Shown here one piece after another: positions 1,495-17,691 of a stretch of DNA of 64,000 nucleotides. The position numbers and the translations under genes were made by a program. Numbering within the stretch: the first letter of the stretch is position 1; every line of letters starts with the position of its first letter. The DNA is taken from positions 36,373 to 100,372 of IMG/VR virus record IMGVR_UViG_3300032173_000002. One strand, given 5' to 3'. The notes below the pieces were generated by a model, which did not search any database, was not told the DNA's origin, and saw nothing but the letters and a program-made list of their open reading frames with translations. This DNA comes from a virus.

Positions 1495-1890
1495 TTGGCA
1501 CTTGCTGAGGAGTTGGATCAGGCACTGATTCGTTATCTGAAGGCAGTTAGGCTGGAGGGACTTGCTGAGGGAGAAGCATGGAGAACATATGTTTCTCCTG
1601 TTTCTGAGCGATGTAAGGAAGTCCTTGGCTCTGTAAAACCGTCTGAGCTCAGTCATATTGTGGACCTTCTACTGGCCATCCACAAAGCGATTTGGGATAG
1701 GGATACTCATGTTCGCAATTTCTCCGGCCCGTTTCTTGGAGACGATGGGAAAATGACCCTAATTGGATTGTTAGCGATTGATGCCCGTGATTTCAACCAT
1801 CTGAGAGTAAGAACTGTGAATCTTTTGAAGGCAATTCTTGGGGAAGATGATGGCGAGCCTAACTTGAAGGATGGTAGGCTAACTCGATGA
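1495..1890 (+). CDS. Hypothetical protein, about 131 aa
   Basis: The start is probably the TTG at 1495, directly after the TGA of the radical SAM gene, so translation is likely coupled. The product looks all-helical and mildly acidic, with no Cys motif or membrane segment. I do not recognise a family. It lies between the radical SAM and glycosyltransferase genes and is probably in the same transcript. Confidence 0.6.
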   Translation: MALAEELDQALIRYLKAVRLEGLAEGEAWRTYVSPVSERCKEVLGSVKPSELSHIVDLLLAIHKAIWDRDTHVRNFSGPFLGDDGKMTLIGLLAIDARDFNHLRVRTVNLLKAILGEDDGEPNLKDGRLTR

Positions 1891-1930
1891 GCTAATAGGA
1901 TGAACAGATAAGAGAAAGGAATTCAAGATA

Positions 1931-2854
1931 GTGGAACCCATTACTATTGGGGTCAATACTAGGAATCGTCCTGAAGCCCTTGCTGTTCAAATCCACTCCA
2001 TCATTCACCAGACTTACCCTTTCTGGTCTTTGATAATCATGGATTGTAGCGACATCCCTGTGATTCAGTTGGAGCCGATTCAGAAGCTTCTGGAGCTTGC
2101 CAAGAAGCTAGGGCATTCTGTTCAGGTTATCAGGCATAAATCTACTTTTGGTATTCCCCAGACCTACCAGAAGCTAATGGAAATATCGAACACCGAGCTG
2201 AATGTAAGGGAGGAAGATGATGCTCCATGGCATCCAGAGCTTCTCATTAGGCTTTACGAGGAGATGGTTAAGAATCCTAACTTGGGAGCGGCAGGACCTA
2301 CCTGTCCTAACTGGAATGATGCTGGGGCAGTGCATAATACTTGGCCGGGAACTAATTACTTCTACATAACTGATAATCATGCTTGGCGACAGCAGTTGGG
2401 TCCGGTTTTGATAGCGGATGATGTTCAGCGCAGACCATGGCCGTCCGTGGAGCCTATTCCTGTGTGCGTGATGCATGGTGGGTTTATGTATCGTAAGAGT
2501 TTGATGGTAAAAGCTGGTGGATTCTGCACGAATCTTTCTACCCAGGGACACAGGGAAGAGACCTGGGCTTCCTTGCGGTTGTTTCTTTCGGGTGCGGATA
2601 TTCTATTTGTTCCCAGAGCCATTCGATGGCATCTGGAACTTCAATCTGGAGGTAGCAGGGACAGATCAGTTGACAATGATCGGATGGCCCTAAAAATGAG
2701 AGATGAAAGACTTTTCCAAGACTGGATGAGGGGTGTGTTAGGGTCGGGCAATTCCCGCATATCGGAGATACCTATCTTCGCTGACGAAAGTTTACGGGAG
2801 AGGATTAGTGCCCAGCAGGCATTAGAACTATTAACCGAATGTAAAGTGGGGTAG
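1931..2854 (+). CDS. Glycosyltransferase, GT-A fold (GT2-like)
   Basis: The protein is about 307 aa from a GTG start. The N-terminus (ITIGVNTRNRPEALAVQIHS, then a TYPFW segment) is the usual opening of GT2-like nucleotide-sugar transferases. An acidic EEDDAPW motif near residue 96 matches the DxD-type metal site. Donor and acceptor are unknown. In phages such genes can decorate DNA bases, capsid proteins or host surface sugars. Its position beside radical SAM and ATP-grasp genes favours a shared small-molecule or base-modification route, but the sequence does not decide this. Confidence 0.75.
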   Translation: MEPITIGVNTRNRPEALAVQIHSIIHQTYPFWSLIIMDCSDIPVIQLEPIQKLLELAKKLGHSVQVIRHKSTFGIPQTYQKLMEISNTELNVREEDDAPWHPELLIRLYEEMVKNPNLGAAGPTCPNWNDAGAVHNTWPGTNYFYITDNHAWRQQLGPVLIADDVQRRPWPSVEPIPVCVMHGGFMYRKSLMVKAGGFCTNLSTQGHREETWASLRLFLSGADILFVPRAIRWHLELQSGGSRDRSVDNDRMALKMRDERLFQDWMRGVLGSGNSRISEIPIFADESLRERISAQQALELLTECKVG

Positions 2855-2862
2855 GGAGCAAA

Positions 2863-3306
2863 ATGAGCAGAGCAGGAAGAATCATTGAACTGCTAGAGGA
2901 AGTAGATATGGGTGCTCAATGTACTTGTGATGATCCACTTCCGATGAAGTATGGACAATGGGACCCACCTGTTTATGTCTGTGCCAAATGCGGTAAGAAT
3001 TTCATGAAACGAGTAGAGTCTGGTGAAGTGGTAGTAGGGGAATCAAAGGCGAAAAGTCTTGGGCTTGTAGAACAGGGAGAAGGGAAGACTTATATAGCGG
3101 TTGGCCCCCTGTGCTGGGGCAAAGCATCCAGCAGGGAAGACGCTATTAAAAGCTGTAAGGGATTCTGGCCTTCGTATATTAAGTTTTCTCCTGAGAAGGT
3201 AAGTATTTATGTAACAGATGATCCAAATGCGTGGGTTGATGAGTACGGCATGATCCATTATAGAGGAAGTCTTGAGCAGATTCAGAAAGCAGGACCTGTG
3301 AGATGA
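2863..3306 (+). CDS. Tagged protein with CxC/CxxC cysteines
   Basis: The protein is 147 aa. It starts with the recurrent N-terminal tag (MSRAGRIIELLEEVD), followed by a possible zinc site (CTCDD near residue 20 and CAKCGK near residue 41) and a mixed alpha/beta C-terminal part. Function is unknown. It is the first tagged gene in the window. Its TGA overlaps the ATG of the next, broken tag gene. Confidence 0.75.
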   Translation: MSRAGRIIELLEEVDMGAQCTCDDPLPMKYGQWDPPVYVCAKCGKNFMKRVESGEVVVGESKAKSLGLVEQGEGKTYIAVGPLCWGKASSREDAIKSCKGFWPSYIKFSPEKVSIYVTDDPNAWVDEYGMIHYRGSLEQIQKAGPVR

Positions 3307-3386
3307 ATAGCAATGCAAGAAAGGTCATCGAGTTGTGAGGGCGGTTCGAGATTGATATTGATCGGAATTTGAGGGATATAAGTTGA
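3303..3386 (+). pseudogene. Relic tag gene with internal stop
   Basis: From ATG 3303 the frame reads MNSNARKVIEL, then TGA at 3336-3338, then 15 more sense codons to a TGA at 3384-3386. The first part is the same N-terminal tag as in the neighbours (compare SASEVIRLW at 9652, where the codon aligning with this stop is TGG). The distal TGA overlaps the TTG start of the ATP-grasp gene. The simplest reading is a short tagged gene broken by a TGG to TGA change, or a tag-only remnant. An 11-aa peptide could still be made. Confidence 0.45.
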
Positions 3387-4699
3387 TTCATGCAAGGGAT
3401 TTTCTTGAGGATCGAATAGTAAGGGAGCAGAGCTATACCACAGGAGTGGATTTATCCAAGAAGACTGTTTTGGTTTATGATTTTGGTCTTTTCTCTGGAA
3501 TAGCGGAGCGCCTCGGTAGAAGCTTCGGAAAGGTCTATTACCATGTTCCGTGGGAGGACGCCTATCCCAGGGCTGGAAAGGCCCTCGTTGGGCGAGGTCT
3601 TCCTGGAGTGGAGAAGGCTTTGGAGTTTTGGCCTTTGGTGGACAAAGTGGACCTGATTTTCTTCCCGGATACTCATTGCTCAGCACTGGCAAGACACCTG
3701 AAGGATCTAGGTTATCCTGTTGCTGCTGCCTTGGAGGCGGAGAGTTTGGAACTGGACAGGGCTTTCGGTAGGCAAGTTCAGAAAGAGATGGGTTTGGACT
3801 ACCAAAAGACAGATCGAGTAATTGGTGTCTCCAACTTGCTAAAGTATCTTGCAGACTATCCAGATGGTGGAAAGTATGTGAAGATTGATATATTCCGGGG
3901 AGAAGTGGAAACATTTCAGCACATTGACTTACCTACCAGCAAAGGGATTTTGGATGTGTTTACCGCAGATATGGGACCCGCAGCAGAGACCATTCCCTTT
4001 TTAGTGGAGGAGAAGGTATCTGGTGTGGAAGGGGGTCTAGATACCATCGTTTGGGATGGGGAGACTCTTTCTCCTACTTGGTTTAGCTACCTTGATGAAA
4101 ATGCCTATATTGCTAAGACGATGGATTTCAAAGAAGTTCCTGACCCGTTTCGGAAAGTTCACGAAGGGTTAGCTCCGGTATTCCGTAAATGGGGCACTAA
4201 GTTTTTCTTCTCCACTGAGATTATTTATGGAAAGAGTCATAGTAAGGCATATCTGATAGATTATACTCTGCGGAACGCAAATCCCTGTATCTCTACTTTA
4301 CAAGCGGAGGTGATCAAGAACTTCCCGGAGCTGATTTGGGCTATGGGTACTGGGGAGAGAGTGGATCCCTGGATCGAGGCTCCATATTGTGGTAGTGTGA
4401 TACTCAACTCTCGGTGGTTCATAAATAACTGGGGACATGTGAAGGTGGATCCCTCTGTGAAGCCTTTTGTTACTTTTCGCTTTCACTATCGGGATAAGGA
4501 CGGAGAGCCGTATCGGTTGCCTGGCTACTCCTCGATGGTGGCTTTTGCTTTGGCTTGGGGGGACTCGGTAGAAGAGGTGATTGCCCTTCTGGAGGAAAGG
4601 CAAGCAAAGGTGAGCTTCCCTTGTCAGGAGAAGTCTTTTCCCAGGGACGAGATAATGAAGGGTTTAGCTGCTTTTGAGAAGGAAGGTATCGAATTCTAA
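3383..4699 (+). CDS. ATP-grasp ligase, PurD/GarS-like, with N-terminal tag
   Basis: The protein is about 438 aa from a TTG start, with GAGGG seven bases upstream. Residues 1 to about 12 (MIHARDFLEDRI) match the recurrent tag. The rest resembles phage phosphoribosylamine-glycine-ligase-like ATP-grasp proteins: a Rossmann-like N-terminal half, then an ATP-grasp half with ESLELDRAFGRQVQKEMGL, EEKVSGVEGG (grasp loop) and a metal-binding DYTLRNANP segment. Such enzymes join an amine to a carboxylate with ATP. The substrate is unknown. A tag on a complete enzyme argues that the tag is an addressing element rather than part of one fold. Confidence 0.75.
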   Translation: MIHARDFLEDRIVREQSYTTGVDLSKKTVLVYDFGLFSGIAERLGRSFGKVYYHVPWEDAYPRAGKALVGRGLPGVEKALEFWPLVDKVDLIFFPDTHCSALARHLKDLGYPVAAALEAESLELDRAFGRQVQKEMGLDYQKTDRVIGVSNLLKYLADYPDGGKYVKIDIFRGEVETFQHIDLPTSKGILDVFTADMGPAAETIPFLVEEKVSGVEGGLDTIVWDGETLSPTWFSYLDENAYIAKTMDFKEVPDPFRKVHEGLAPVFRKWGTKFFFSTEIIYGKSHSKAYLIDYTLRNANPCISTLQAEVIKNFPELIWAMGTGERVDPWIEAPYCGSVILNSRWFINNWGHVKVDPSVKPFVTFRFHYRDKDGEPYRLPGYSSMVAFALAWGDSVEEVIALLEERQAKVSFPCQEKSFPRDEIMKGLAAFEKEGIEF

Positions 4700-4720
4700 G
4701 GAGACAGAAAGGAGACAGAA

Positions 4721-4945
4721 ATGAGCAAAGCGCAGGAGTTACTAACTCAACTTCTTGAGCGGGATGTAGGTTCTGTTTACTCTAAAGCAGTTTCCTTGGG
4801 ATATACCTACATTCGTGGGGGGAAACCTGATAAGACAGGCAAAGTCTGGCTGACCAGGTTTACCAAGTCGGGTGACCCGGATAGCCCTGCTATTTTTGTT
4901 GGGTATGATGAGGAGACGGGAGAGTTTGTAGTAGAGGAAGAGTAG
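4721..4945 (+). CDS. Small tagged protein, 74 aa
   Basis: The tag MSKAQELLTQLLERD is followed by about 55 residues rich in beta-type residues, with an acidic end (EETGEFVVEEE). The first 21 bases of the gene are identical to those of the gene at 5029, while the bodies differ. This points to recent duplication or recombination at the tag. Function is unknown. Confidence 0.7.
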   Translation: MSKAQELLTQLLERDVGSVYSKAVSLGYTYIRGGKPDKTGKVWLTRFTKSGDPDSPAIFVGYDEETGEFVVEEE

Positions 4946-4946
4946 A

Positions 4947-5003
4947 GTGTCGAATTCTAAGCCTAAGACCAGGGCTATGCAATTCCTTGAAGATGGTGAT
5001 TAG
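4947..5003 (+). pseudogene. Tag-only mini-ORF, 18 aa
   Basis: The frame runs from GTG 4947 and gives MSNSKPKTRAMQFLEDGD followed by TAG. The TRAMQFLEDGD part matches the tag of adjacent proteins, but there is no downstream domain. It could be a decayed tagged gene or a genuine micropeptide. Translation is not demonstrated; the GTG follows the upstream stop by one base. Confidence 0.4.
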
Positions 5004-5028
5004 CAGGAACGGAAAAGGGAGGCTAAAA

Positions 5029-5361
5029 ATGAGCAAAGCGCAGGAGTTAATTGGTGTTCTTAATGAAACAGGGGAGATGTCATACAGGGATATTGAACCT
5101 GGCGGAGAGGATTATGAATGGGCTAAGGCAATTGAGGGTGCCGTAAGGAGGATAGAGAGCAAAACGGGAGGCAAGCTGAAATTCATCGAGATGAGACCTT
5201 TTGACAAGTACCAAGGACCATATGCCAGTGTTACAATAAATGGAAGGAGAGATCGTATTTGGGATGCCGGTGATCCTGAAAAACCGCTTGCCCTTTACAT
5301 AGAGGAACTCGGTTTTACTGGAACTGAGGATGAAGTAGCAGACTATATCAATAGTCTTTAG
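5029..5361 (+). CDS. Small tagged protein, 110 aa
   Basis: The start is ATG 5029, preceded by GGGAGG with seven bases between, rather than the upstream in-frame ATG at 4987. The tag is MSKAQELIGVLNETG. The body is a small alpha/beta domain of unknown function. The first 21 nt are identical to the gene at 4721. Confidence 0.7.
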   Translation: MSKAQELIGVLNETGEMSYRDIEPGGEDYEWAKAIEGAVRRIESKTGGKLKFIEMRPFDKYQGPYASVTINGRRDRIWDAGDPEKPLALYIEELGFTGTEDEVADYINSL

Positions 5362-5410
5362 TAGTCCTGTATGGGCATGCAAGAAGCTATTAGCAGAGGA
5401 TTCGGGTGAA

Positions 5411-5812
5411 ATGAATAGGGCCCGACAGTTTCTCGAATATAACAGTCAAGGCTGGATTGGCGTGGACTTGGATGGTACTCTTGCTCATTACGATTCTGGA
5501 TATTCTAGTCACTTCATGGTGGGCCCACCTATTCCAGCTATGCTGGCGAGAGTGAAGGATTGGCTGGCTCAAGGGAAGGATGTGAGAATCTTTACTGCTC
5601 GTGTAGCACCACCTCACTCCGAGGAGGTGATTGCAAGGCAGAGAGGAATAATTGAAGATTGGTGTTTGGAGCACCTCGGTACTGTCTTGCCTATTACAGC
5701 TACCAAGGATTACGAGATGCTGGAGTTATGGGATGATCGCTGTGTGACTGTGGAAAAGAACACAGGAAGGTGTTTGACTTTATTGCGAGGAGAAATAGAA
5801 GGACTACAATGA
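5411..5812 (+). CDS. HAD-like phosphatase with N-terminal tag
   Basis: The protein is 133 aa. The tag MNRARQFLEYNSQ leads directly into a compact HAD domain. Motif I is DLDGTL, with its first Asp at residue 18. IFTARV follows at the motif II position, and ELWDDRCVTVE gives the acidic motif. Phage HAD proteins of this size act on small phosphates or nucleotide ends; the substrate is unknown. A relic of this gene's 3' end is present at 6161-6223. Confidence 0.8.
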   Translation: MNRARQFLEYNSQGWIGVDLDGTLAHYDSGYSSHFMVGPPIPAMLARVKDWLAQGKDVRIFTARVAPPHSEEVIARQRGIIEDWCLEHLGTVLPITATKDYEMLELWDDRCVTVEKNTGRCLTLLRGEIEGLQ

Positions 5813-5843
5813 GAGAGGGTTTTGAAATTAAGGGAGGTCAAAG

Positions 5844-6137
5844 ATGAATAGGTCGCAGAAAGTTATGAAACTTCTTGAAGAAGAACAGGGCGATGCTCCG
5901 TTTTTCATTGACAAAACAAGTAAATATGGCTATAGGCTTGTCTTGAATAATAATCCATCCGGAAGGGCTTATCTCTATCTATACAATCCGGATGGAAAAC
6001 TTGGGTTGCAAGAACCCTTAGAGACTTATTTTCAATGGACACCAAACGGATGGTCTTCTGTATTTTTGGGGCTCGGCAAGTTCAAACCCTTGGAGGAGAA
6101 GGATGTCCTGAAAGTGTTCAAGAATTATGGCTTTTAA
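5844..6137 (+). CDS. Small tagged protein, 97 aa
   Basis: The tag MNRSQKVMKLLEEEQ is followed by a roughly 80-residue domain rich in aromatic and beta residues (YRLVL, RAYLYLYNPDGKLG, YFQWTPNGW). A good GGGAGG lies upstream. No family is recognised. Confidence 0.7.
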   Translation: MNRSQKVMKLLEEEQGDAPFFIDKTSKYGYRLVLNNNPSGRAYLYLYNPDGKLGLQEPLETYFQWTPNGWSSVFLGLGKFKPLEEKDVLKVFKNYGF

Positions 6138-6160
6138 TTCCATGGTAGCCATATTTGTTC

Positions 6161-6223
6161 ATGTCGGATGAAACAGGAAGGTGCTTGACTTTGCCAACTA
6201 AATCCCAGGGAGGACTAGAATGA
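6161..6223 (+). pseudogene. Relic of the HAD gene 3' end
   Basis: A 20-codon frame (MSDETGRCLTLPTKSQGGLE) closely matches the last residues of the HAD phosphatase at 5411-5812 (NTGRCLTLLRGEIEGLQ). At DNA level, AGGAAGGTGCTTGACTTT corresponds to AGGAAGGTGTTTGACTTT. The TGA overlaps the next gene's ATG (ATGA). This is evidence of past duplication and loss in the accessory block. Confidence 0.5.
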
Positions 6224-6450
6224 GCATAGCAAATAGATTTTTGGAGCAATTTATGGAGGGCTATAAGATTAGAGGTTGGATTTATGATGGAGATATTCAC
6301 TGCGAGGGTTGTGCGTATGATCGGTTTGGAGTTAGAATTTACGACGAGGAGAATCCTCCAGAGGACAGCGAAGGGAATCCTATAACTCCTTTGTTTGCAT
6401 CAGATGCAATAGGAGATGAGGTTTGTGGCGATTGTGGCTCACCGTTATAG
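6220..6450 (+). CDS. Small tagged zinc-ribbon-like protein, 76 aa
   Basis: The tag MSIANRFLEQFMEG is followed by a CEGC pair near residues 28-31 and a CGDC pair near residues 70-73, giving CxxC...CxxC spacing consistent with a zinc ribbon. The C-terminus overlaps the next gene by 35 nt. Function is unknown. Confidence 0.7.
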   Translation: MSIANRFLEQFMEGYKIRGWIYDGDIHCEGCAYDRFGVRIYDEENPPEDSEGNPITPLFASDAIGDEVCGDCGSPL

Positions 6451-6844
6451 TAGCAGATCGGAAGCGAAGTCTAAAGCAGCTATCTTGATACGGGGGATTG
6501 AGGAGCTTTATCCTCTTTCAGAAGAGATGATTTCGGTAAAAAAGCTAGATGGAAGAACAGAGTATAAGCTGGGTCCTGTAACAGTGATTGTCTGTTACGA
6601 CGATATTGTTCTTGATTCGGAGGGGACTCGGCTCTCGCAAGAGACGGGATGGTGGGATTATAGAGGGATAATCTACATCTGGGGGCCTGAGTTAAGTCGT
6701 ATGCAGAAGCTGGGAATAGGAATTCATGAGTTTGTGGAGATGGTCTTAGAAAGTAAGTTGAGGATGCCCCATAGCTGGTCTCATTTTGTAAGTAACGTCT
6801 TAGAGTTTGTTTTTACTCTGGGGAGATCAAAACCTGATTGGTAA
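6416..6844 (+). CDS. Hypothetical protein with HEFVE motif and internal tag-like stretch
   Basis: The protein is up to 142 aa. Residues 19-28 (SKAAILIRGI) look like the recurrent tag (compare TKAANLIREL at 10483), but no start codon lies just before it, so the tag is internal or the original ATG was lost. A GIHEFVE segment near residue 103 resembles a short metal-site helix. No protease family is assigned with confidence. ATG 6416 lies inside the preceding gene. Confidence 0.6.
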   Translation: MRFVAIVAHRYSSRSEAKSKAAILIRGIEELYPLSEEMISVKKLDGRTEYKLGPVTVIVCYDDIVLDSEGTRLSQETGWWDYRGIIYIWGPELSRMQKLGIGIHEFVEMVLESKLRMPHSWSHFVSNVLEFVFTLGRSKPDW

Positions 6845-6855
6845 GGAGATAAGAG

Positions 6856-7050
6856 ATGAAAAAGATTATCCCAGATACTGCTGAAGAGTTTACTTCCTGG
6901 CCAGAAAGCAAAGGAGGGGATGTCCTGGAGGAAACTCATCAGACTACCCCTTCCGGAAAACCTACAGAGTCAGGCTCTCCAAAGGGCTCCACTCCTGATT
7001 GGTTATACAAGAGGGAGATTTCAAGAGCTCACGGCGATTTAGTGATTTAG
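6856..7050 (+). CDS. Hypothetical Ser/Thr/Pro-rich protein, 64 aa
   Basis: A GGAGATAAGAG ribosome binding site precedes ATG 6856. The middle is low-complexity (THQTTPSGKPTESGSPKG), as in a linker. The C-terminal ISRAHGDLVI is weakly reminiscent of the tag. No function can be given. Confidence 0.55.
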   Translation: MKKIIPDTAEEFTSWPESKGGDVLEETHQTTPSGKPTESGSPKGSTPDWLYKREISRAHGDLVI

Positions 7051-7065
7051 GAGGGGACATCTACC

Positions 7066-7989
7066 ATGAGAGATGTACTCTATGAAGCGGAGCAGGAGGA
7101 GATTGGTCGCATAAGGGATCAGATCGCCGATCTCCAACAGCGAAAGTCAGATGCTGAGGACGAGGAGGAGAAGGCGAGGATCAATCTGGAGATAGCCCGA
7201 CTAAAGAAAGACCTGAGTGATTTGAAAGATGAGATCAAACCGGAGGAGTTCTCAGGAGGAGGTCGTTATATGAGCAGAGCAAGGTTTGTATTGCGAGAGT
7301 TTCATGCTCTGGAACAGCAAGCCATGGATGTTGAGGTACAGAAGAAGCTGGACGAGTTTATTTCTCTCTATCGTGAGATGAAGTCTCTGGAAGCAAGAAT
7401 AGAGGTCCTATCTGCTCGCAGTGATATTCTCCAGAAGGAGCTTGTTCCCATTATAAAGGAGTCTGCCGAGCAGATGGCTCTAGTGGAGAATGCGACAGTC
7501 AAATATAAGACTAGAGCAGTTACATCTCTTTCTTACAAGACTCTCTTTGAACAGGCCTTGGGTAAGGTGAATAAACAGACTCGTGCCATATTGGAGGACC
7601 TGAAAGAAAAGCTCACTTCCTCCTATGTGAAGGAGTTTCTGGATGTGAAGGCAGAGTCCTGGTTTACGGATTTGGTGGACAAATTTCGTAACTGGATTCG
7701 CTCGGTGGTGGAAAAGCTTGGTGTATTGAAGAGCGCTGTAGCTGAGTTACTTTCTGTGGCACAGCGGGAGCCTTCTGAATCGGAAGCATTTAGATATGGG
7801 GATAAGATTAGGTCTGCGGTAGACAAGGCTGTAACCCTCTTTCATAACAAGGGTAGCATTACGAAGGATGATGTGGTTTCTGTTTTGATAAAAGTCCTTG
7901 GCAGGATGGGGTGGGTGGCAGAAGATGTAGAGGAGGTAGTAGATCAGTTGAGGTCTGCTCATGGTATTAGAGTGAAGGAGAGCAGGTGA
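7066..7989 (+). CDS. Coiled-coil protein with nested tagged start at 7270
   Basis: The 307-aa frame begins with about 60 residues of charged coiled coil. At codon 69 it contains a second start, ATG 7270 (MSRARFVLREFHALE), preceded by AGGAGGAGG at good spacing. The nested product of 239 aa carries the recurrent tag. The rest is mostly helical (residues 90-230), with no recognised fold. Either two in-frame proteins are made or an upstream ORF fused to a tagged gene. Function is unknown; the position just before the head genes suggests a virion component. Confidence 0.65.
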   Translation: MRDVLYEAEQEEIGRIRDQIADLQQRKSDAEDEEEKARINLEIARLKKDLSDLKDEIKPEEFSGGGRYMSRARFVLREFHALEQQAMDVEVQKKLDEFISLYREMKSLEARIEVLSARSDILQKELVPIIKESAEQMALVENATVKYKTRAVTSLSYKTLFEQALGKVNKQTRAILEDLKEKLTSSYVKEFLDVKAESWFTDLVDKFRNWIRSVVEKLGVLKSAVAELLSVAQREPSESEAFRYGDKIRSAVDKAVTLFHNKGSITKDDVVSVLIKVLGRMGWVAEDVEEVVDQLRSAHGIRVKESR

Positions 7990-8714
7990 GATTCCATTCT
8001 GATTGTGATAAACGACTCTTCCTCTTAGAAGTGGGGAGAGTCGATTTACTGGATAAAGTGAAGGGCGATTCCTGGGAACCCTCCTCTGACTTGGTGGAGC
8101 TTTTTATCAAGGGTCGGCAATCCTTGATTCCTAAACTGAAGGACTTCCGCAGGTCACAAGCCACAAAGTCAGCATGGAGGCACCACCGACCTGCCTTCTT
8201 AAAGGGGATTCGTACCTTTCATAGGTCAACAGCGGGAAAGCGGTTCCACCGAACATTAGGCAGGTGGTTAGCCACTCGTCTTCAAGATAGGGATAAGTTT
8301 GGTTCTATCTACTCTTTGCGAAATGAGTCCCTGGAGCAGAGAGTGGATTTGCTTAGGGCTATTACTTCCATTATGAACTATGCTTTTCAAGAGTTGGAGT
8401 TCTATCACGATCTTTATGAGGAGCTGGATTACTGGGAATTTTTGGAAGAGCTTTTCCCCATTGCTGAATCCATAGAGAGGAAGCTGTTTTCTGGGGAGGA
8501 TGAGTTGACTGAGGAAGAGATAGATGTGCTTGCAAGAATGGTAGAGGATGATGAGATAGTAGCTTCTGTCGCAGAGGCCATAGGGAGAAGCAGGGAGGAT
8601 GTCTGGAATAGGCTAAGAGAAGTTAGGTCAAAGAGCGAATCGGATGAGGAGATCGGGTGGGGACTGAGATTATTTCAGGAAATGTTATCTCTGACGGAGG
8701 TCAAGAATGACTAG
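7986..8714 (+). CDS. Hypothetical protein with Arg/His-rich central segment, 242 aa
   Basis: The ATG overlaps the upstream stop (GTGAG/ATG context at 7986). Residues 55-100 are strongly basic (RRSQATKSAWRHHRP, TFHRSTAGKRFHRTLGRW) and probably bind nucleic acid. The C-terminal half is acidic and helical. A structural or internal virion protein is possible. I do not recognise the family with certainty. Confidence 0.65.
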   Translation: MRFHSDCDKRLFLLEVGRVDLLDKVKGDSWEPSSDLVELFIKGRQSLIPKLKDFRRSQATKSAWRHHRPAFLKGIRTFHRSTAGKRFHRTLGRWLATRLQDRDKFGSIYSLRNESLEQRVDLLRAITSIMNYAFQELEFYHDLYEELDYWEFLEELFPIAESIERKLFSGEDELTEEEIDVLARMVEDDEIVASVAEAIGRSREDVWNRLREVRSKSESDEEIGWGLRLFQEMLSLTEVKND

Positions 8715-8733
8715 GAAAGGAGGGAGTTGAGGG

Positions 8734-9324
8734 ATGAGTAAGCTAAGGTCGGGAAGAATTACGGAGGAACTGGGGACTCTCTGGGTAGCCCCAGGGATGG
8801 GAGCTACTGTAGATGAACTACTGGCCAGTTTGCAAGGTGCGCAACATTTGGCTGGCTGGGAGGCTGCTGCGGCAAACTTACTCAGACTGAAAAATGAGAG
8901 GGGTGAGGATTGGAGGACGAACTTGGCACTGATGACGGGGTGGCCTCTTCAAGAGTATGATATGGCTCGCATGGCTTCTGCTGCTGTTGAGTCCAAGAGG
9001 AAGCCAGTTTCTGCCAGCAGCTTTATAGCTGAGTTTCGGTGTTTAGAAGGAGAAGAGGATGAGGAGCAAGTAAGAGAATATGAAAAAAGGAAGAAGCTTG
9101 AAACTCGTACAGCAGAGGACGGTAGTCTTCTGGTCAAGATTGGGGAAGACAGGTGGCAGAAGCTCCCCAGAGGCTGGACTGAGGATAGCCTACGAAAGTT
9201 TTGGAAGAGCTTGACTGGGGATCGTAAGCACAAGATCACTGCTTGTATGAAGAAGATGGCGGGGATCATTGATGATCCAGGGGCATTCTGTGGTGGTCTC
9301 GCTTCTCGACTGGGGGAAAGATAA
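8734..9324 (+). CDS. Hypothetical protein, 196 aa
   Basis: GGAGGGAGTTGAGGG precedes ATG 8734. The protein is mixed alpha/beta with a charged stretch EGEEDEEQVREYEKRKK near residues 106-122. The stop overlaps the next ATG (TAATG). No domain is recognised. Confidence 0.65.
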   Translation: MSKLRSGRITEELGTLWVAPGMGATVDELLASLQGAQHLAGWEAAAANLLRLKNERGEDWRTNLALMTGWPLQEYDMARMASAAVESKRKPVSASSFIAEFRCLEGEEDEEQVREYEKRKKLETRTAEDGSLLVKIGEDRWQKLPRGWTEDSLRKFWKSLTGDRKHKITACMKKMAGIIDDPGAFCGGLASRLGER

Positions 9325-9584
9325 TGTGGACAGGGACAGCAGCACAGTATATTCTTCCATTTCATGAATCCGTTCGTGAATCCGTTCTTGATGGGGTGGA
9401 CAGGCTGATAGCTGATCACGGACTGGGGGATGTGTTATCGGCATTGGTCCAGACTTGTGAGAACCGTTACAGCAAGGCATCTCTAAATGGGTGGTCTGAT
9501 AGAGCCCAATTCTGGAAACGATTGAGGGACAGGCTAATTCCATTGGCTACGGAGGTATTACAGGATGAGGGGACTGCCCCATGA
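9324..9584 (+). CDS. Hypothetical helical protein, 86 aa
   Basis: The start overlaps the upstream stop (TAATG) and the end overlaps the next ATG (ATGA at 9581), so it sits in a coupled operon. Predicted all-helical. Function is unknown. Confidence 0.6.
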   Translation: MWTGTAAQYILPFHESVRESVLDGVDRLIADHGLGDVLSALVQTCENRYSKASLNGWSDRAQFWKRLRDRLIPLATEVLQDEGTAP

Positions 9585-9655
9585 TCTCTGCTAAGAGTTT
9601 TCTCAAGGGACAGAAGTACGATGTTAAAACTGGAAAGAAGTTGGAGGGGCAATGA
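9581..9655 (+). CDS. Tag-like mini-protein, 24 aa
   Basis: The frame ATG 9581 to TGA 9653-9655 overlaps both neighbours (ATGA at each end), which favours real translation. The N-terminus MISAKSFLKGQ resembles the tag, followed by a basic tail (KTGKKLEGQ). Confidence 0.45.
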   Translation: MISAKSFLKGQKYDVKTGKKLEGQ

Positions 9656-10473
9656 GGAGTGCAAGTGAAGTAATTAGACTATGGGAAGATGCTGATGAGG
9701 ATTCTTCCCAGCAAAGTGTTTCTAATCTGGGTGCTATTCCTAATCCTGCGGCAGGAGTAGTGACTATCCAGCATCCAAATCGAATTCGCAGGAGATTCAA
9801 GAAAACAAAGTGGCCTTGGGGCTACGAAGACAGGGAGGACAGAAAAATGTCGAGGGCTAAGGATTTCCTGGGCATATTTGAGCAGGATGAGCCGGCTGTA
9901 ATGGATGTTACGCCTGGGGAAGTAGAGACTTCAGTAGAGGAGAAACCGATTGACAAAGAGGAGCTTCTCACTAAGATCTCATCTATGAAGGATCTTATTG
10001 ATGGGTCTATGGACACTTGTATAGCTACCATCAAGAGAGCAGAGACGGATGACGAGATTAAGATGGCGTCTTCTGTACTCCGGGCAACCCTGAGTGGGGT
10101 TGTGAGTGGTTTTCAGGAGGGGCGTAACAAGCCAAAGGTGAGGAAGCGGGAAGTTCGAGAGCAGGCCTGGCTAGACACGGGAGAAGTAGACTTATGTGCT
10201 AACTATGATCCGGATGAGGCTTCTTGCAAGTCCGGCTGCTCAAGTGAAGTGGTAGTGGCAGGCGATGTGTGTCCTTACATACAGGACCAATCTGTGTGTG
10301 ACTGCTATTTGGCGGAGTCGGGTGAGTCGCAAAAGAAAGTCCGGGAGCAATTTGATTGTGGTAACTTAATTGAGGGTGAAATATGCGAAACAGGATGTCC
10401 AACAGAAGGGGTAGATAAGGGTAGCAAGTGTCCATTTTTAGGTAGTCAAATGGGCTGTGGCTGTTATCAATAG
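9652..10473 (+). CDS. Doubly tagged protein with two Cys-rich repeats
   Basis: The frame is 273 aa with two tags: MRSASEVIRLWEDADED at residue 1 and MSRAKDFLGIFEQDE at codon 66 (ATG 9847, with GGGAGG eight bases upstream), so a nested 208-aa product is possible. The C-terminal 90 residues hold two copies of a cysteine unit, roughly C-x(6-8)-C-x3-C-x(11)-C-P-x(8)-C-x-C-Y. A third copy is in the next gene. The cysteines may bind zinc or an Fe-S cluster. Function is unknown. Confidence 0.7.
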   Translation: MRSASEVIRLWEDADEDSSQQSVSNLGAIPNPAAGVVTIQHPNRIRRRFKKTKWPWGYEDREDRKMSRAKDFLGIFEQDEPAVMDVTPGEVETSVEEKPIDKEELLTKISSMKDLIDGSMDTCIATIKRAETDDEIKMASSVLRATLSGVVSGFQEGRNKPKVRKREVREQAWLDTGEVDLCANYDPDEASCKSGCSSEVVVAGDVCPYIQDQSVCDCYLAESGESQKKVREQFDCGNLIEGEICETGCPTEGVDKGSKCPFLGSQMGCGCYQ

Positions 10474-10482
10474 GAGCTTGAA

Positions 10483-10713
10483 ATGACTAAAGCAGCTAAT
10501 CTGATCCGCGAGCTTTCTGAAGAGGAAGCTCCTCGCTGCGTCAATTTGGGGAGTGATCAGCAATGTGTCACAGGCTGTATGGTCCGTGAGGAGGGGATAG
10601 TTCCCCAGGGTGCACCTTGTCCCCACTTGGATTCATTCACTGTATGTCCGTGCTATCAGGCTTCCAGACCTTACAGGAAGCCCTGGGAAGGGAAGACGAA
10701 GAAAGGCCCATGA
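10483..10713 (+). CDS. Small tagged Cys-rich protein, 76 aa
   Basis: The tag MTKAANLIRELSEEE is followed by one copy of the cysteine unit of the upstream gene (C-x8-C-x3-C-x13-CP-x8-C-x-C-Y) and a basic tail. The arrangement of tag plus one unit looks like a minimal version of the 9652 gene. The stop overlaps the next ATG (ATGA at 10710). Confidence 0.7.
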   Translation: MTKAANLIRELSEEEAPRCVNLGSDQQCVTGCMVREEGIVPQGAPCPHLDSFTVCPCYQASRPYRKPWEGKTKKGP

Positions 10714-10958
10714 ACATAGTTTCGAGGGCTCGGCGAGTCCAAGATGCGCTTGGAGAACCCCTTAGCGAAGGAGACTCTACAGTTCTCTACTTTACAAGAG
10801 TTTTTGTAGGTGGCCCTTTTGCTGGAGTGGCTATGAATGACTATAAGCTTTTCTCCTCCGCCAAGGAAGCAATCGAGTGGGCTAAGAAAGGCAAGGAGGG
10901 AATTGAAAATTGGAAAGTGATCAAGGCTTCTTTCCAGAAGTATTGGAGGGACAGGTAA
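10710..10958 (+). CDS. Small tagged protein, 82 aa
   Basis: ATG 10710 overlaps the upstream stop and is preferred to the in-frame ATG 10617. The N-terminus MNIVSRARRVQDALGE carries the tag slightly offset (SRARRVQDAL). The body is a small alpha/beta domain. Function is unknown. Confidence 0.65.
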   Translation: MNIVSRARRVQDALGEPLSEGDSTVLYFTRVFVGGPFAGVAMNDYKLFSSAKEAIEWAKKGKEGIENWKVIKASFQKYWRDR

Positions 10959-10959
10959 G

Positions 10960-11331
10960 ATGGGTTTGGCCAGAGATGTTTTGAAACTGGTGGAAGAGAT
11001 AGAGAAGGGGGGATCGCTGAGGTTTAAGAGGACCCTTAAATCTGGCTCTTGGTTAAGGCCAGGAAGCTTTGCGCCTCACAGGTCGAAGTGGGGTATTTAT
11101 TCGAAGGACGGAAAGATTTTGGGTATTCTTCAGCATGGGGGTGGAAACAATGGCTGGTGCGTATTGGATGCTGTGACTAGGAAACCCGTGACTAATAGTG
11201 ATCAGCTATTGAATTTTAGACAGGCCTGGGATGCGGCCAAGGGAATTTTTTCAGGAGCGCCAATCTCCCAGGAGACTGGTGGGGCTGTATTGCCCTCCTC
11301 TGAATCTTTGATTCTTAGGAGAATGAGGTGA
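10960..11331 (+). CDS. Small tagged protein, 123 aa
   Basis: The tag MGLARDVLKLVEEIEKG is followed by a basic region and a WGIYSKDGKILGILQ segment that looks like a small beta domain. Nineteen bases of the tag region (10984-11002) are repeated exactly at 11782-11800 in the tag-like end of the 11605 gene. Function is unknown. Confidence 0.65.
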   Translation: MGLARDVLKLVEEIEKGGSLRFKRTLKSGSWLRPGSFAPHRSKWGIYSKDGKILGILQHGGGNNGWCVLDAVTRKPVTNSDQLLNFRQAWDAAKGIFSGAPISQETGGAVLPSSESLILRRMR

Positions 11332-11335
11332 GCAG

Positions 11336-11608
11336 TTGAAAGGGAATAATGTTGCTCTGGACTACTTGTATTCTTTAGCTACTCACAGACCTGCTTCTTG
11401 GGATTTCATAGACTCCACTGACTTTAGTTTACTCCCTTCCTGGGTCAGGTCTTATCTGGAGGGATTGGAGGTCCGCGAAGTAAGTGGTAATCCGGAGTCT
11501 ACAGGAGAGGATTGTCTGTTACGGAGGGAGGGACAATTGTTCTGGGTAAGTATAGGTGCTCGTTATTTGAGAATTGAGAATTTTGTAGCAAAGGGAGGTG
11601 ACTTATGA
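11336..11608 (+). CDS. Hypothetical protein, 90 aa
   Basis: The likely start is TTG 11336, just after the upstream TGA. Its TGA overlaps the ATG of the next gene (ATGA at 11605). No motif is recognised and it lacks a clear tag. Confidence 0.55.
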   Translation: MKGNNVALDYLYSLATHRPASWDFIDSTDFSLLPSWVRSYLEGLEVREVSGNPESTGEDCLLRREGQLFWVSIGARYLRIENFVAKGGDL

Positions 11609-11814
11609 AATATGGAGTGTGGTGGATAGATGCTGATCAGAAAGAGCAGAAGGAGTATTTCGACACTGAGGATGCAAGGATGGCGAAGGTCAAGGAGTTG
11701 ATGGCCACTAACTTGCCCTGGAAGCTGATACCGGAGCATAGGGTTGCGGGATCAAGCATGACAACAGCTAAGGATGTCCTTAAACTGGTGGAAGAGATAG
11801 GCTCAAGAGGCTAA
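11605..11814 (+). CDS. Hypothetical protein ending in a tag sequence
   Basis: The frame is 69 aa. Its last 18 residues, from an in-frame ATG at 11758 (MTTAKDVLKLVEEIGSRG), are a tag nearly identical to the N-terminus of the 10960 gene. This could be a C-terminal tag fusion or a nested tag-only peptide left from a decayed gene. The N-terminal part is a small alpha/beta fold of unknown role. Confidence 0.55.
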   Translation: MKYGVWWIDADQKEQKEYFDTEDARMAKVKELMATNLPWKLIPEHRVAGSSMTTAKDVLKLVEEIGSRG

Positions 11815-11843
11815 ACAACTATAACAGAAGGAGGTAACAAACA

Positions 11844-12377: not shown

Positions 12378-12417
12378 GGTGACTATATTGTGATGCCCTG
12401 CGAAGGGAGGTGATAGA

Positions 12418-13824
12418 GTGGGTAGATTGATCAGAGGAGTGTTTGATCCAGGGGTCAAGTTCGAGTTTGTGGAAGGTGCGCCAGGGGAAGTGGACGGGGA
12501 GCATATCCTGGGTAAGGTGCGAGGGAGGTTCTTCGTCCCTGGTGGAGTTTCTCGGAATTCCCGTTACTATCCTCCAGAAGTATGGGAACGACAGCTTGGT
12601 CTTGAAGAAGTAAAGTCCAGGCTGGAGAACAAGCAGATGTTCGGAACGATTGGCCACGAGGATGAGATTAGTGATAAGAATCTTCGTGATGGAAAGATGT
12701 CGCATATTGTTACTCGTCTCACTCCTGACGGACAGAACTGCGAGGCCTTGATTCTGAACACACCTGCCGGGAAGGTGCTAAATACAGTTCTTCGTGCCGG
12801 GGCAAAGTTGTATGTTTCCAGCAGAGCAGATGGAGAGTATAAGGGAACGCACAATGGGGTTCCTATGGTTGACCCAGAGAAGTTCAAACTGGAGGGTTTT
12901 GATTTTGTTTTAGATCCTGGATTCCTGGAGGCAAACCCAGGTCTAGTGGAAAGTTACAAAGCTGATTTTGATTCTGTTCTTGGAGGTGATGCAATTCCGA
13001 AGAGAAATTTTACTGAAAAGGAGGTAGTGAAATCTATGGAACAAGAATTTGCAGAGGCCTTGATGAAGAAGAATAGTCGTCTGGAGGAGGAACTTAATCG
13101 GGTGTTAGGTGAACTTCAGATGCAGACTTCTAGAGCCAATAGTTTGGAGGCTGAGAGGTCAGTTTGGTCTCAGAAAGAAAGGGATCTCACCGAAACTAAG
13201 AAAGCCTTGGAAAGTGCGCAGGCTTCTCTGAAAGAGTATGAGTCTTTGGGGACTCCTTCGGAGATTTCCAGAGCATTTGACTTAGCTATGAAAATGAAGG
13301 AGTCTTTCAAGGAGCTTGGCACCCCGAAAGAGATTTCCAGGGCATTTGATTTGGCAGCTAAGAGGTTGAGGGAGTACAAGTCCCTTGGATCAGTTTCTGA
13401 GATTAGGAAAGCTCTTGATCTTGCTCGCAAACTTCTGGAAGCTTACAAGCCTCTTGGAAGGCCGGGAGAGATCAAGGCTGCTTTCGATAAGGCAGAGGGA
13501 TTTATCAGGAGAGTCCGGGAGACTCAAAAGAAGAAAAAGGTTGAGGCCTTATCGAAGGAACTGGGTGTCCCTGAGAAGGATATTACCAAAGTCCTGGGCA
13601 AGCCAGTGAAGGAGGAGGATATAAAGGACTTGGTGAAATCGCTCAGAGAGAGCACCAAGGCTAAGGACAGGTTCGGTGCTCGGCCCAAGGACAAGGATTC
13701 GGGCGGTTCCGATAACGAGTCTAGGGGCGTTGACTTCAGCGAGTCCTTAGCAGACAGGCTGTCCAGGCAGTTCAATCGGACAGTCCCAACTTCGAAGAAG
13801 AAAGTAAGTCCAATTAACAGTTAG
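12418..13824 (+). CDS. Prohead protease (T4 gp21-type) fused to scaffold
   Basis: The protein is 468 aa from a GTG start with GGGAGGTGATAGA upstream. Residues 30 to about 180 match gp21-family (S77) prohead proteases: GRFFVPGGVSRNSRYYPPEV, the His-containing GTIGHEDE (His 80) and the Ser-containing LYVSSRADGEY (Ser 134/135). Residues 205-430 form a charged helical scaffold with four tandem 23-residue repeats (13237-13512). The fusion would both shape and mature the prohead. In T4, gp21 cleaves the core and N-terminal targeting peptides; here the tagged proteins are candidate substrates (inference). Confidence 0.85.
   Translation: MGRLIRGVFDPGVKFEFVEGAPGEVDGEHILGKVRGRFFVPGGVSRNSRYYPPEVWERQLGLEEVKSRLENKQMFGTIGHEDEISDKNLRDGKMSHIVTRLTPDGQNCEALILNTPAGKVLNTVLRAGAKLYVSSRADGEYKGTHNGVPMVDPEKFKLEGFDFVLDPGFLEANPGLVESYKADFDSVLGGDAIPKRNFTEKEVVKSMEQEFAEALMKKNSRLEEELNRVLGELQMQTSRANSLEAERSVWSQKERDLTETKKALESAQASLKEYESLGTPSEISRAFDLAMKMKESFKELGTPKEISRAFDLAAKRLREYKSLGSVSEIRKALDLARKLLEAYKPLGRPGEIKAAFDKAEGFIRRVRETQKKKKVEALSKELGVPEKDITKVLGKPVKEEDIKDLVKSLRESTKAKDRFGARPKDKDSGGSDNESRGVDFSESLADRLSRQFNRTVPTSKKKVSPINS
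13237..13512 (+). repeat. Four tandem 23-residue helical repeats in the scaffold domain
   Basis: Four consecutive 69-nt units encode the pattern [YF]-x2-LG-x(3)-EI-x2-A-[FL]-D-x-A, with units 1 and 2 the most alike (LGTP.EISRAFDLA). The register is exact with no indels. It probably forms an extended helical rod in the internal scaffold. Confidence 0.75.
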
Positions 13825-13841: not shown

Positions 13842-15257
13842 ATGCCGGAAATGCAAGAAGCTTTAGCAGAGGCGCGAGTTAATAAGATGCGGCGGGAGGC
13901 CGAGCGCCTGTATGAGAGATATCCCAAACAAATGAACACCCTGGAGAGCAAGTCCTTGCTATCCAGAGTTAGACAGATTGAGTATTGGGATATTTATGGT
14001 CTTGGGAAAATTCTGGAGCAATTTTCCGAAGACCTAAAGATGTTTGAGGAGCAAGGGAATGTGGGGCTACTGGGCGTTATCCCCAACATTGCCTTCGATG
14101 TCTTGACAGTAGCATATGGTGCAAGCATCGTGCCTTTAATCTGCTCGGTACAGCCTATCGAGGAAGAACAGGGCACAGTGTACTTCAAGACAGTTCGGTC
14201 TGCCACCCAGAAGGGGAACTTGACTGCTGGCCAGACCATCTTGGATCCTCGCTCGATTCAGGTAACTCCCTATGCCTTCGCTAGCAACTATGTATCTGGG
14301 GAGGTAGCGGGAACTACTTCCAATGGTGTAACTGAGTATGCCCTGACAACCAATACTACCCCAGTGAGACCGAGAACCTTTTCCGTTGCTATCTCTGAAC
14401 TCTCTGTTTCGGGAGTGGATGATGGTAGCGGGAATATTGCCGGAGTGGGTTGCTCAGGGACAATCGATTACACCACAGGAGTAGTGAACCTGACCCTTGT
14501 GGAAGATCCGGGCGATACTTACAACATCACCTTTAGCTACCAGATCAACTATGAGTTAGCTGAGACTCTTCCGAATATAGATAGTTACTATGCAAGCCAG
14601 ACCATTCTTGCTAAGGTGTTTGCCCTTAGAGGAACTGTCGGCTTGCTGATGAGCTATGGATTAAGGAAGAGATTCGGGCTCATCGCAGAGGATGAGCTTG
14701 CTAAGGATCTGGTGAACGAGATCAATGCGGAAATTGGGGGAACTCTGATCCGTATGATGTATAGCAAAGCAGTGGGAAATACAGATTGGGATCAGACAGT
14801 CCCTGACGGAGTCAGTTGGTTCGAGCACCAGATGAGTTACAAGAAAGCGGTAGCCTATGCAGAGTCCACCATTGTAGGGAATGCCGGTCGCGGGACGATC
14901 AGTGGTTTGATCGTTGGACAATCCCATTCTGCGATCTATGAGACTTTGCCTGGGTTCGAGAAGCTAACCGATGGGAACACCATCGGGCCGCATCTCTTCG
15001 GCACCTTCGATGGAAAGTCGGTTATTCGGGTTCCTGAAACTTCCATGCTGGGGACTTGGAATGGACTTGCTTTCTGGAAGGGTACAAGCCCGTTTGAAGC
15101 TCCTGCGGTGTATTCCCCGTTCATGCCGTTAGTGGTTACAGATTTGCTTCCTATCGGCCTGAACCCGTTGGGAACACAGCGGGCGGCTGCGGTATGGGCT
15201 GGACTGGATGTGTTGGTCGAACGGTTCATTACCAAGCTGACTGTAACTCAGACCTAA
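13842..15257 (+). CDS. Major capsid protein, T4 gp23-like
   Basis: The protein is 471 aa with a strong AAGGAGG site. The N-terminal charged helical segment (residues 1 to about 65) is likely a pro-region removed by the prohead protease. The HK97-type core follows, with NIAFDVLTVAYGASIVPLI, LAKDLVNEINAEI and GRGTISGLIVG. An inserted beta-rich stretch at about residues 145-230 (GTIDYTTGVVNLTL) probably forms a surface domain. The position after the protease-scaffold gene and before a strong hairpin terminator matches a T4-like head module. Confidence 0.88.
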   Translation: MPEMQEALAEARVNKMRREAERLYERYPKQMNTLESKSLLSRVRQIEYWDIYGLGKILEQFSEDLKMFEEQGNVGLLGVIPNIAFDVLTVAYGASIVPLICSVQPIEEEQGTVYFKTVRSATQKGNLTAGQTILDPRSIQVTPYAFASNYVSGEVAGTTSNGVTEYALTTNTTPVRPRTFSVAISELSVSGVDDGSGNIAGVGCSGTIDYTTGVVNLTLVEDPGDTYNITFSYQINYELAETLPNIDSYYASQTILAKVFALRGTVGLLMSYGLRKRFGLIAEDELAKDLVNEINAEIGGTLIRMMYSKAVGNTDWDQTVPDGVSWFEHQMSYKKAVAYAESTIVGNAGRGTISGLIVGQSHSAIYETLPGFEKLTDGNTIGPHLFGTFDGKSVIRVPETSMLGTWNGLAFWKGTSPFEAPAVYSPFMPLVVTDLLPIGLNPLGTQRAAAVWAGLDVLVERFITKLTVTQT

Positions 15258-17484: not shown

Positions 17485-17691
17485 ATGAGCAAAGCCAGAG
17501 AGTTTTTGGAGATGGAGTTACTAAGTCAAGATCTGCGGAGGGAAGCTGCTGCTGTCGAGGATCATTTGAATAAGTTTTATGATCGTTGGCATCTCGTATT
17601 TAATGATGAGGAGTTAGATGCGATTACCTCAGCTTTGAAGATCCTTCGCAATCTTCAAAAAGTGGACTTGCTGGTCAAGCCTCAGCGTTGA
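17485..17691 (+). CDS. Small tagged helical protein inside the neck module
   Basis: The protein is 68 aa and begins with the clear tag MSKAREFLEMELLSQ, then a helical body. This is the only tagged gene found beyond the capsid gene, so tagged proteins are not confined to the left block. A 25-nt hairpin repeat overlaps its 3' end. Confidence 0.65.
   Translation: MSKAREFLEMELLSQDLRREAAAVEDHLNKFYDRWHLVFNDEELDAITSALKILRNLQKVDLLVKPQR

What the first reader, a model, noticed from the sequence alone, without database searches (positions are those of the whole stretch)
3303..11800. Tags behave as a DNA-level shuffling unit, with tag-only relics
The genes at 4721 and 5029 are identical over their first 21 bases and then diverge. 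Nineteen bases inside the tag of 10960 (10984-11002) recur exactly at 11782-11800 in the tag-like end of another gene. Tag-only or broken tag frames occur at 3303 (internal TGA), 4947 (18 codons), 9581 (24 codons) and 11758 (18 codons). This suggests new cargo genes are captured or lost by recombination at the tag sequence.
Basis: seen in the sequence. Interest (0 to 1): 0.65.

Follow-up and report, generated by a model that had tools for sequence, protein, structure and literature searches.

The report
Capsid-import tags on phage cargo genes
A bacterial virus carries about twenty unrelated small proteins that all begin with the same 13-residue tag, most likely a ticket that loads them into the virus head for injection into the host; tag-plus-cargo units are gained, lost and fused as modules, though tags are not constantly reshuffled at the DNA level.

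Summary
The exact repeats and tag-like frames are real. The tag, M-[SN]-[KR]-A-x-x-[LI]-[LI]-x-x-[LVIF]-x-E, is found here on about 17 genes upstream of a T4-type prohead protease (gp21-like) and capsid protein (gp23-like). A model trained only on other phages finds 13 copies in this 100-kb genome against 0.2 expected. It also marks 147 ORFs in ten related phages, including reference phage RHph_Y65. It ends in the hydrophobic-x-E motif cut by T4 gp21, and conservation stops there. The best reading is a capsid-targeting sequence, as on T4 internal proteins. A divergent version sits on YerA41 proteins recorded as virion components.

The shuffling claim is partly supported. Compared with one syntenic relative, tagged genes are mostly gained or lost between conserved genes. 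Three in-frame junctions (a fourth likely) fall at tag edges, one showing that 11758 lost its cargo or its relative gained one. Modules also fuse with tags at the joints. But conserved tagged genes keep their own tags, and DNA-level copying shows in only some pairs and genomes. T4 ipII/ipIII show the same pattern. New variant of a known kind; virion location and cleavage are inferred, not shown.

The parts
2863..3306 (+). tagged gene, MSRAGRIIELLEE + CxC-rich cargo; window-only relative to L022
3303..3338 (+). broken tag frame MNSNARKVIEL* (relic)
4721..4945 (+). tagged gene MSKAQELLTQLLE; first 21 nt identical to 5029
4947..5003 (+). weak tag-like mini frame (KTRAMQFLEDGD), score 5.8
5029..5361 (+). 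tagged gene MSKAQELIGVLNE; cargo homologous to tagged gene G001 65897 at another map position (after the capsid gene)
5411..5812 (+). tagged gene MNRARQFLEY; HAD/phosphatase-like cargo
5844..6137 (+). tagged gene MNRSQKVMKLLEE
6220..6450 (+). tagged gene MSIANRFLEQFME
7066..7989 (+). coiled-coil segment shared with L022 6402-6575, then internal tag MSRARFVLREF at 7270 and window-only cargo: junction at the tag
7986..8714 (+). untagged conserved head-cluster gene between portal and protease in relatives (position of T4 gene 68)
8734..9324 (+). ORF with internal tag-like stretch (9004-9048, PVSASSFIAEFRCLE) before a domain that is a separate tagged gene in G001 (28218) and G002 (95223); likely cargo swap in L022
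9581..9655 (+). weak tag-like mini frame MISAKSFLKG, overlapping neighbouring stop and start codons
9652..10473 (+). two-tag protein: MRSASEVIRLWED - basic peptide - second tag (9847) - Cys-rich modules; ortholog L022 8340
9847..9885 (+). internal tag MSRAKDFLGIFEQ
10483..10713 (+). tagged gene MTKAANLIRELSE with Cys-rich module; window-only
10710..10958 (+). gene with tag-like N-terminus MNIVSRARRVQDALGE (offset register)
10960..11331 (+). tagged gene MGLARDVLKLVEE; ortholog L022 9120, which carries an extra in-frame tag+cargo at its C-terminus
11605..11814 (+). ORF ending in the tag MTTAKDVLKLVEEIGSRG* (tag 11758-11811); ortholog L022 10300 continues into cargo, so the window copy is a cargo-loss relic or L022 a gain
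12418..13824 (+). T4 gp21-like prohead protease (PF03420 above cutoff), conserved H80/S134/D162; scaffold-like C-terminal half
13842..15257 (+). gp23-like major capsid protein (PF07068 above cutoff)
17485..17691 (+). tagged gene MSKAREFLEMELL; diverged ortholog L022 16246

Best explanation
The tag is a capsid-targeting sequence. It is a short N-terminal amphipathic helix that binds the scaffold core of a T4-type prohead, carries the attached protein inside, and is then removed by the gp21-like protease after a hydrophobic-x-E motif at residues 12-13. The cargo remains in the head with the DNA and is injected, probably to take over the host or block its defences. The unit of evolution is tag+cargo. 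Genes that acquire a tag become head cargo and are gained, lost or fused quickly, while some stay put for long times with their own tag. Occasional recombination or copying within the 39-base tag gives tags shared between unrelated cargo, in-frame joins at tags and tag-only relics. Shown: the motif, its genomic setting, the turnover and the junctions. Inferred: packaging, cleavage, injection and the function of the cargo.
For: Tag is real: a model trained without this genome or its close relative finds 13 copies, all on the + strand at 15.9-53.9 kb, against 0.18 in shuffles; 147 tagged ORFs over ten phages; 54 hits against 2.2 in shuffles over 373 kb around related capsid genes. Cleavage motif: [LIVMF]-x-E in residues 10-18 of 107/144 tagged proteins (74%) against 7-17% in the windows from residue 19 on; composition shuffles of residues 8-16 give 40% against 76% observed; conservation ends at residue 13. 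Protease and capsid: PF03420 and PF07068 above curated cutoffs, alignment to T4 gp21 over its catalytic region. T4 gp21 cuts after L/I-x-E and the first 10 residues of IPIII suffice for targeting (PMC9026906). Head link: tagged RHph_Y65 gp330 matches a head scaffolding family; YerA41 205c, 208c and 209c, with MS[RK]ISxxNxKFE, and variant 206c are recorded as structural proteins, and the paper reports LC-MS/MS of particles. Cargo of injectable type: ADP-ribosyltransferase, AAA ATPase, complete sigma-70 factor, GNAT. Turnover and junctions. DNA copying confined to the tag; the same in T4 ipII/ipIII.
Against: No virion proteomics exists for this phage. The tag is not demonstrably homologous to T4's MKTYQEFIAE: by the tag model the T4 sequences rank only in the top 3-5% of random starts. 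About a quarter of tags lack a clear hydrophobic-x-E, and only 49% have the strict L/I-x-E. Conserved tagged genes keep their own tags. Only one close syntenic relative was available, from a metagenome contig. YerA41 is distant (27% capsid identity), its supplementary table could not be read, and four of five tagged proteins being structural is not significantly more than other small proteins there (P 0.14).
Confidence: 0.82

Rival explanations
1. The tag acts chiefly as a DNA recombination site: its sequence is a hotspot where cargo is continually swapped, and the peptide is a by-product.
For: Exact 17-23 base identities limited to the tag between unrelated cargo in G000, G001, G002 and G004, and 32/39 to 35/39 identity in G008 and G009 pairs; total codon identity above codon-usage expectation in G001, G002, G004 and weakly G000; in-frame junctions at tags; four-sequence comparison of the 10960/11758 tags with their orthologs favours within-genome similarity at 5 sites, orthologs at 1, crossed pairing at 2.
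Against: Most tag pairs show no synonymous excess; no signal in G003, G005, G009 or RHph_Y65; ortholog tags match each other best; upstream bases are not shared; lineages use different tag wordings, so no fixed DNA word exists.
Confidence: 0.12
2. Tandem duplication of whole genes followed by fast divergence of the bodies, leaving only the tag recognisable.
For: Many tagged genes are adjacent and similar in size; one clear recent duplication with a truncated copy (G001 16351/16819).
Against: Pairs with near-identical tag DNA have random-level identity immediately outside it, which divergence of a duplicated gene would not give; cargo belongs to unrelated families.
Confidence: 0.06
3. The tag is a localisation or assembly signal other than capsid import (tail, membrane, replication compartment or host target).
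For: No packaging data for this phage; one tagged gene lies close to the tail genes (17485).
Against: Ends in the prohead-protease motif; sits in gp21/gp23 head clusters; on a head scaffold protein and on recorded virion proteins.
Confidence: 0.07
4. Chance resemblance of amphipathic N-termini.
For: Short motif, a few weak cases (4947, 9581).
Against: 13 against 0.18 hits with an independent model; 54 against 2.2; all on the coding strand in this genome.
Confidence: 0.01

Closest known systems
T4 internal proteins IPI/IPII/IPIII and Alt with their capsid-targeting sequence (Mullaney & Black; Repoila et al. 1994; reviewed in PMC9026906, PMC3012670; functions in PMC12373910)
   Same: Short N-terminal tag on otherwise unrelated small proteins, ending in an L/I-x-E-type motif, in a phage with gp21 protease and gp23 capsid; accessory, variable repertoire; DNA of ipII and ipIII identical over the tag (32 nt) and then unrelated; Alt is an ADP-ribosyltransferase (own knowledge), as is cargo G002 93344.
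   Different: About 10-26 tagged genes in the larger contigs instead of 3 IPs; different tag wording; tags also inside proteins at module joints; cassettes in one co-directional block around head genes without an excess of promoter-like sites; tag-only relics.
phiKZ/SPN3US inner-body and ejection proteins with prohead-protease propeptides (PMC5694885, PMC9026906)
   Same: Head proteins with N-terminal propeptides cut after x-x-E by a gp21-related protease and injected.
   Different: Propeptides there are mostly over 100 residues (one of 20) and the phiKZ motif is S/A-x-E; here a uniform 13-residue tag.
Phage P1 Dar anti-restriction proteins associated with the head (PMC12810830, abstract only)
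   Same: Head-associated defence-against-restriction proteins.
   Different: Whether they share a short tag family was not examined here.

Membership tests
T4-type capsid-targeting sequence / internal protein system | Short conserved N-terminal tag on proteins with unrelated bodies | tested here: met
   Logo of 147 tags, conservation stops at residue 13; independent-model hits 13 vs 0.18; unrelated cargo families
T4-type capsid-targeting sequence / internal protein system | Tag ends in the prohead-protease motif L/I-x-E | tested here: met
   [LIVMF]xE 74% vs 7-17% in later windows; strict [LI]xE 49% vs 3-9%; P3 is looser than in T4
T4-type capsid-targeting sequence / internal protein system | gp21-family protease and gp23-family capsid encoded beside it | tested here: met
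   PF03420 and PF07068 above cutoff; hhalign to T4 gp21 E 2e-6
T4-type capsid-targeting sequence / internal protein system | Sequence similarity to T4 CTS MKTYQEFIAE | tested here: inconclusive
   Tag-model scores of ipII/ipIII in the top 3-5% of background starts
T4-type capsid-targeting sequence / internal protein system | Tagged proteins present in the mature head and cleaved at the motif | not testable with these tools
   Indirect only: YerA41 tagged proteins recorded as structural
T4-type capsid-targeting sequence / internal protein system | Repertoire variable between relatives | tested here: met
   tagged genes mostly without ortholog in the syntenic relative
T4-type capsid-targeting sequence / internal protein system | Cassettes flanked by their own early promoter/terminator (PeaT; own knowledge; a trait of T4 loci, not of the tag itself) | tested here: not met
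   12 promoter-like sites vs 13.5 expected over the block; sigma-70 consensus only
T4-type capsid-targeting sequence / internal protein system | Anti-restriction function | not tested
   No cargo target known; PADLOC scan gave nothing decisive
DNA-level shuffling element | Tag DNA more alike between paralogs than codon usage allows, with sharp borders | tested here: inconclusive
   Positive in G000 (weak), G001, G002, G004; negative in G003, G005, G009, RHph_Y65
DNA-level shuffling element | Tag and body have different histories | tested here: not met
   Five of five window/L022 ortholog pairs have tags at or near the best match; deeper comparisons saturated

The most novel reading that the evidence does not exclude
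Gp21/gp23-lineage phages outside the T4 group run a general, portable head-import code: each lineage has its own 13-residue dialect placed on tens of unrelated proteins, and internal copies turn fused genes into polyproteins that the prohead protease separates, so that a captured gene becomes an injected effector as soon as it acquires the tag.
Probability: 0.5. Interest if true: 0.75.

Novelty: new variant of a known kind. Interest (0 to 1): 0.6.

Why it matters
If right, the injected-protein repertoire of a large, mostly uncultured phage group can be read from sequence: any gene with the tag is a candidate head-packaged effector. T4 internal proteins turned out to be specific inhibitors of modification-dependent restriction enzymes (PMC12373910). 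This phage also encodes 7-deazaguanine synthesis genes, so its tagged cargo is a natural place to look for new counter-defence proteins. Fused tag-cargo modules and tag-only relics also make it possible to study how phages capture and discard effectors.

Tried and rejected
1. Exact repeats as proof of DNA shuffling: Monte Carlo with fixed amino acids explains most of them; a linkage permutation leaves a weak signal in some genomes.
2. Close Rhizobium isolates as a test of swaps: two tagged regions are 97-100% identical where aligned and show only deletions or replacements elsewhere in the regions, so uninformative.
3. Scans with the two-tag protein and the gp68-position protein found only the same relative again; the genome-contig scan found none.
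4. T4 CTS homology by profile: inconclusive.
5. Structure of cargo 10960: poor model (pLDDT 58). Cargo 5029: good model (84.6) but no convincing fold match. Both predict a helix over residues 3-14/15, as expected for the tag.
6. Per-cassette promoters: none beyond chance.
7. PADLOC hits of cargo: weak or generic.
8. Enrichment of tagged proteins among recorded structural proteins of YerA41: not significant (P 0.14).
Full report
What is there. The window is bases 36373-100372 of a 100,372-base viral contig. Between about 15.9 and 53.9 kb of the genome, about 17 genes on one strand start with the same short tag and then differ completely. The tag reads M-[SN]-[KR]-A-x-x-[LI]-[LI]-x-x-[LVIF]-x-E. 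A model trained only on tags of other phages finds 13 copies scoring 12 or more in this genome, all on the + strand in this interval, against 0.18 in shuffled genomes. The block lies upstream of a T4 gp21-like prohead protease (12418-13824, PF03420 above its cutoff) and a gp23-like capsid protein (13842-15257, PF07068 above its cutoff). The protease aligns with T4 gp21 over the catalytic region, with H80, S134 and D162 conserved.

The two exact repeats and the four mini frames exist. The frame at 11758 is not free-standing: it is the in-frame end of ORF 11605-11814. The frames at 4947 and 9581 are poor tags. Two better tag-only frames lie just outside the window, at genome 34034 and 34992. The exact repeats are mostly explained by the shared amino acids: with codons redrawn from genome usage, the 4721/5029 run has P 0.0025 as a pair, 0.075 family-wise over two genomes and 0.003 within this genome. 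The 10960/11758 run is not significant family-wise.

How widespread. Capsid relatives in IMG/VR carry the tag: 54 hits against 2.2 expected over 373 kb around the capsid gene. Ten phages give 147 tagged ORFs, among them the reference Rhizobium phage RHph_Y65, where most tagged genes are hypothetical and one, gp330, is annotated as a prohead core protein and matches a head-scaffold family. Tags are more alike within a genome than between genomes (permutation P below 0.001). More distant relatives have their own wording: M-x-[LI]-[IV]-x-E-[LIV]-x-x-L-L-E in L037, L039 and L050 (15 hits, 0.1 expected) and MS[RK]ISxxNxKFE in Yersinia phage YerA41.

What the tag is. Conservation ends at residue 13, with Glu at 12 or 13 and a hydrophobic residue two before it. 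The motif [LIVMF]-x-E occurs in residues 10-18 of 74% of tagged proteins, against 7-17% in the windows from residue 19 on; shuffling residues 8-16 gives 40% against 76% observed. T4 gp21 cleaves after L/I-x-E, and the first ten residues of IPIII suffice to bring a protein into the head (PMC9026906). T4 internal proteins share little beyond this leader (PMC3012670; PMC12373910). In YerA41 three tagged proteins and a variant (206c) are recorded as structural, and the paper reports LC-MS/MS of purified particles including enzymes and a sigma factor thought to be injected (PMC7354516). I could not read its table, and the enrichment over other small proteins is not significant. Recognisable tagged cargo includes an ADP-ribosyltransferase (G002 93344), AAA ATPases, a sigma-70 factor with regions 2, 3 and 4 (G001 28570), a GNAT enzyme with a weaker tag and a phosphatase-like protein (w5411). 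T4 Alt is likewise a head-packaged ADP-ribosyltransferase (established knowledge). So a capsid-targeting sequence is the best reading; packaging, cleavage and injection remain inferred.

Do tags shuffle. The relative L022 (capsid 79% identical) is collinear through window 1-18600. Untagged genes mostly have orthologs (15 of 21 in the window, 15 of 16 in L022); tagged genes mostly do not (3 of 12 and 4 of 12 do; Fisher P 0.014 and 0.001; a stricter window count gives 0.05). Three in-frame breaks lie at a tag edge: 7257/7270, where a shared coiled coil is followed by a window-only tag and cargo; 11328 against L022 9498, where L022 has an extra tag and cargo fused on; and 11758, where L022 continues into about 75 aa of cargo after the tag. 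A fourth, 8734 against L022 about 7573, is likely: similarity through the tag P below 0.001, but the part before the tag alone is P 0.08. Tags with margins cover about 6% of coding sequence, so four of seven such breaks is unexpected (P 0.0004; three of six P 0.004). The list of seven was made by hand.

Modules. In G003 and G008 an AAA protein and a second domain are one protein with a tag-like sequence at the joint. In G004 and G005 the second domain is a separate gene with its own N-terminal tag. The window's 8734 ORF has a tag-like stretch before a domain that is a separate tagged gene in G001 (66% identical over 67 aa) and G002. This supports tag+cargo as the unit.

Limits on shuffling. 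All five window/L022 ortholog pairs have tags that rank at or near the top for each other, so conserved tagged genes keep their tags. DNA-level sharing exceeds codon-usage expectation in G001, G002 and G004 and weakly in G000, but not in G003, G005, G009 or RHph_Y65. A permutation that tests codon linkage gives P 0.005-0.05 in G000, 0.018 in G001 by longest run, below 0.003 in G002 and 0.005 in G004 by variance. Pairs with strong sharing, for example 23 bases between G001 6642 and 22839, 16 kb apart, are alike only within the tag. T4 itself shows this pattern: ipII and ipIII are identical for 32 bases from the start codon, then 10/30; a short stretch before the start codon is also alike there. 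For the tags of 10960 and 11758 and their orthologs, five sites favour within-genome similarity, one the orthologs and two the crossed pairing, suggestive of conversion.

Setting. The genome encodes GTP cyclohydrolase I, a QueD-type protein, a radical-SAM protein in the position of QueE, QueC and a queuine tRNA-ribosyltransferase-like protein, pointing to 7-deazaguanine DNA modification. T4 IPs act against nucleases that attack modified DNA (PMC12373910). A counter-restriction role for some tagged cargo is therefore plausible but untested.

Verdict. New variant of a known kind: a T4-like capsid-targeting system in another lineage, with a much larger tagged repertoire, internal tags at module joints and tag-only relics.

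Noticed in passing
window 16051-17013 (insert about 16360-16812): Intein (PF14890 above cutoff) in a gene just after the capsid cluster; the relative L022 15283-15768 lacks it.
   Followed up: partly
window 45775-50976: GTP cyclohydrolase I, QueD, QueE-like radical SAM, QueC and queuine tRNA-ribosyltransferase-like genes: probable 7-deazaguanine DNA modification.
   Followed up: partly
window 9652-9846: Two-tag protein with a strongly conserved basic peptide (NLGAIPNPxxGVVTIQHPNRIRRxFKKxKxPWGY) between the tags, in window and L022.
   Followed up: no
window 10202-10473, 10483-10713; L022 about 7573-8330; L057 3139-3378: Cys-rich module (C-x-x-G-C ... CPY/CPF ... C-x-CY) recurring on different tagged proteins and phages.
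   Followed up: partly
L080 4184-7027 (G003 43584): Tagged AAA protein interrupted by an intein with a homing endonuclease domain.
   Followed up: no
L056 16351-16530 and 16819-16899: Recent duplication of a tag plus the start of its cargo, second copy truncated to 27 codons: a relic in the making.
   Followed up: partly
NC_070967.1 130992-131249: Tagged ORF of RHph_Y65 (MSKASEVIKKLNET) between tRNA genes that the record does not annotate.
   Followed up: no
genome 14179 to window 12418: Likely portal gene lies about 35 kb before the protease here; in RHph_Y65 and other relatives portal, a 240-aa gene, protease and capsid are adjacent.
   Followed up: no
L047, L052 capsid genes: Capsid matches start only at residue 107 or 87 of the query, hinting at an interrupting element or divergent N-terminus.
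   Followed up: no
L004 1015-2873: Glycosyltransferase-like gene of window 1931 is tandemly duplicated in the relative.
   Followed up: no
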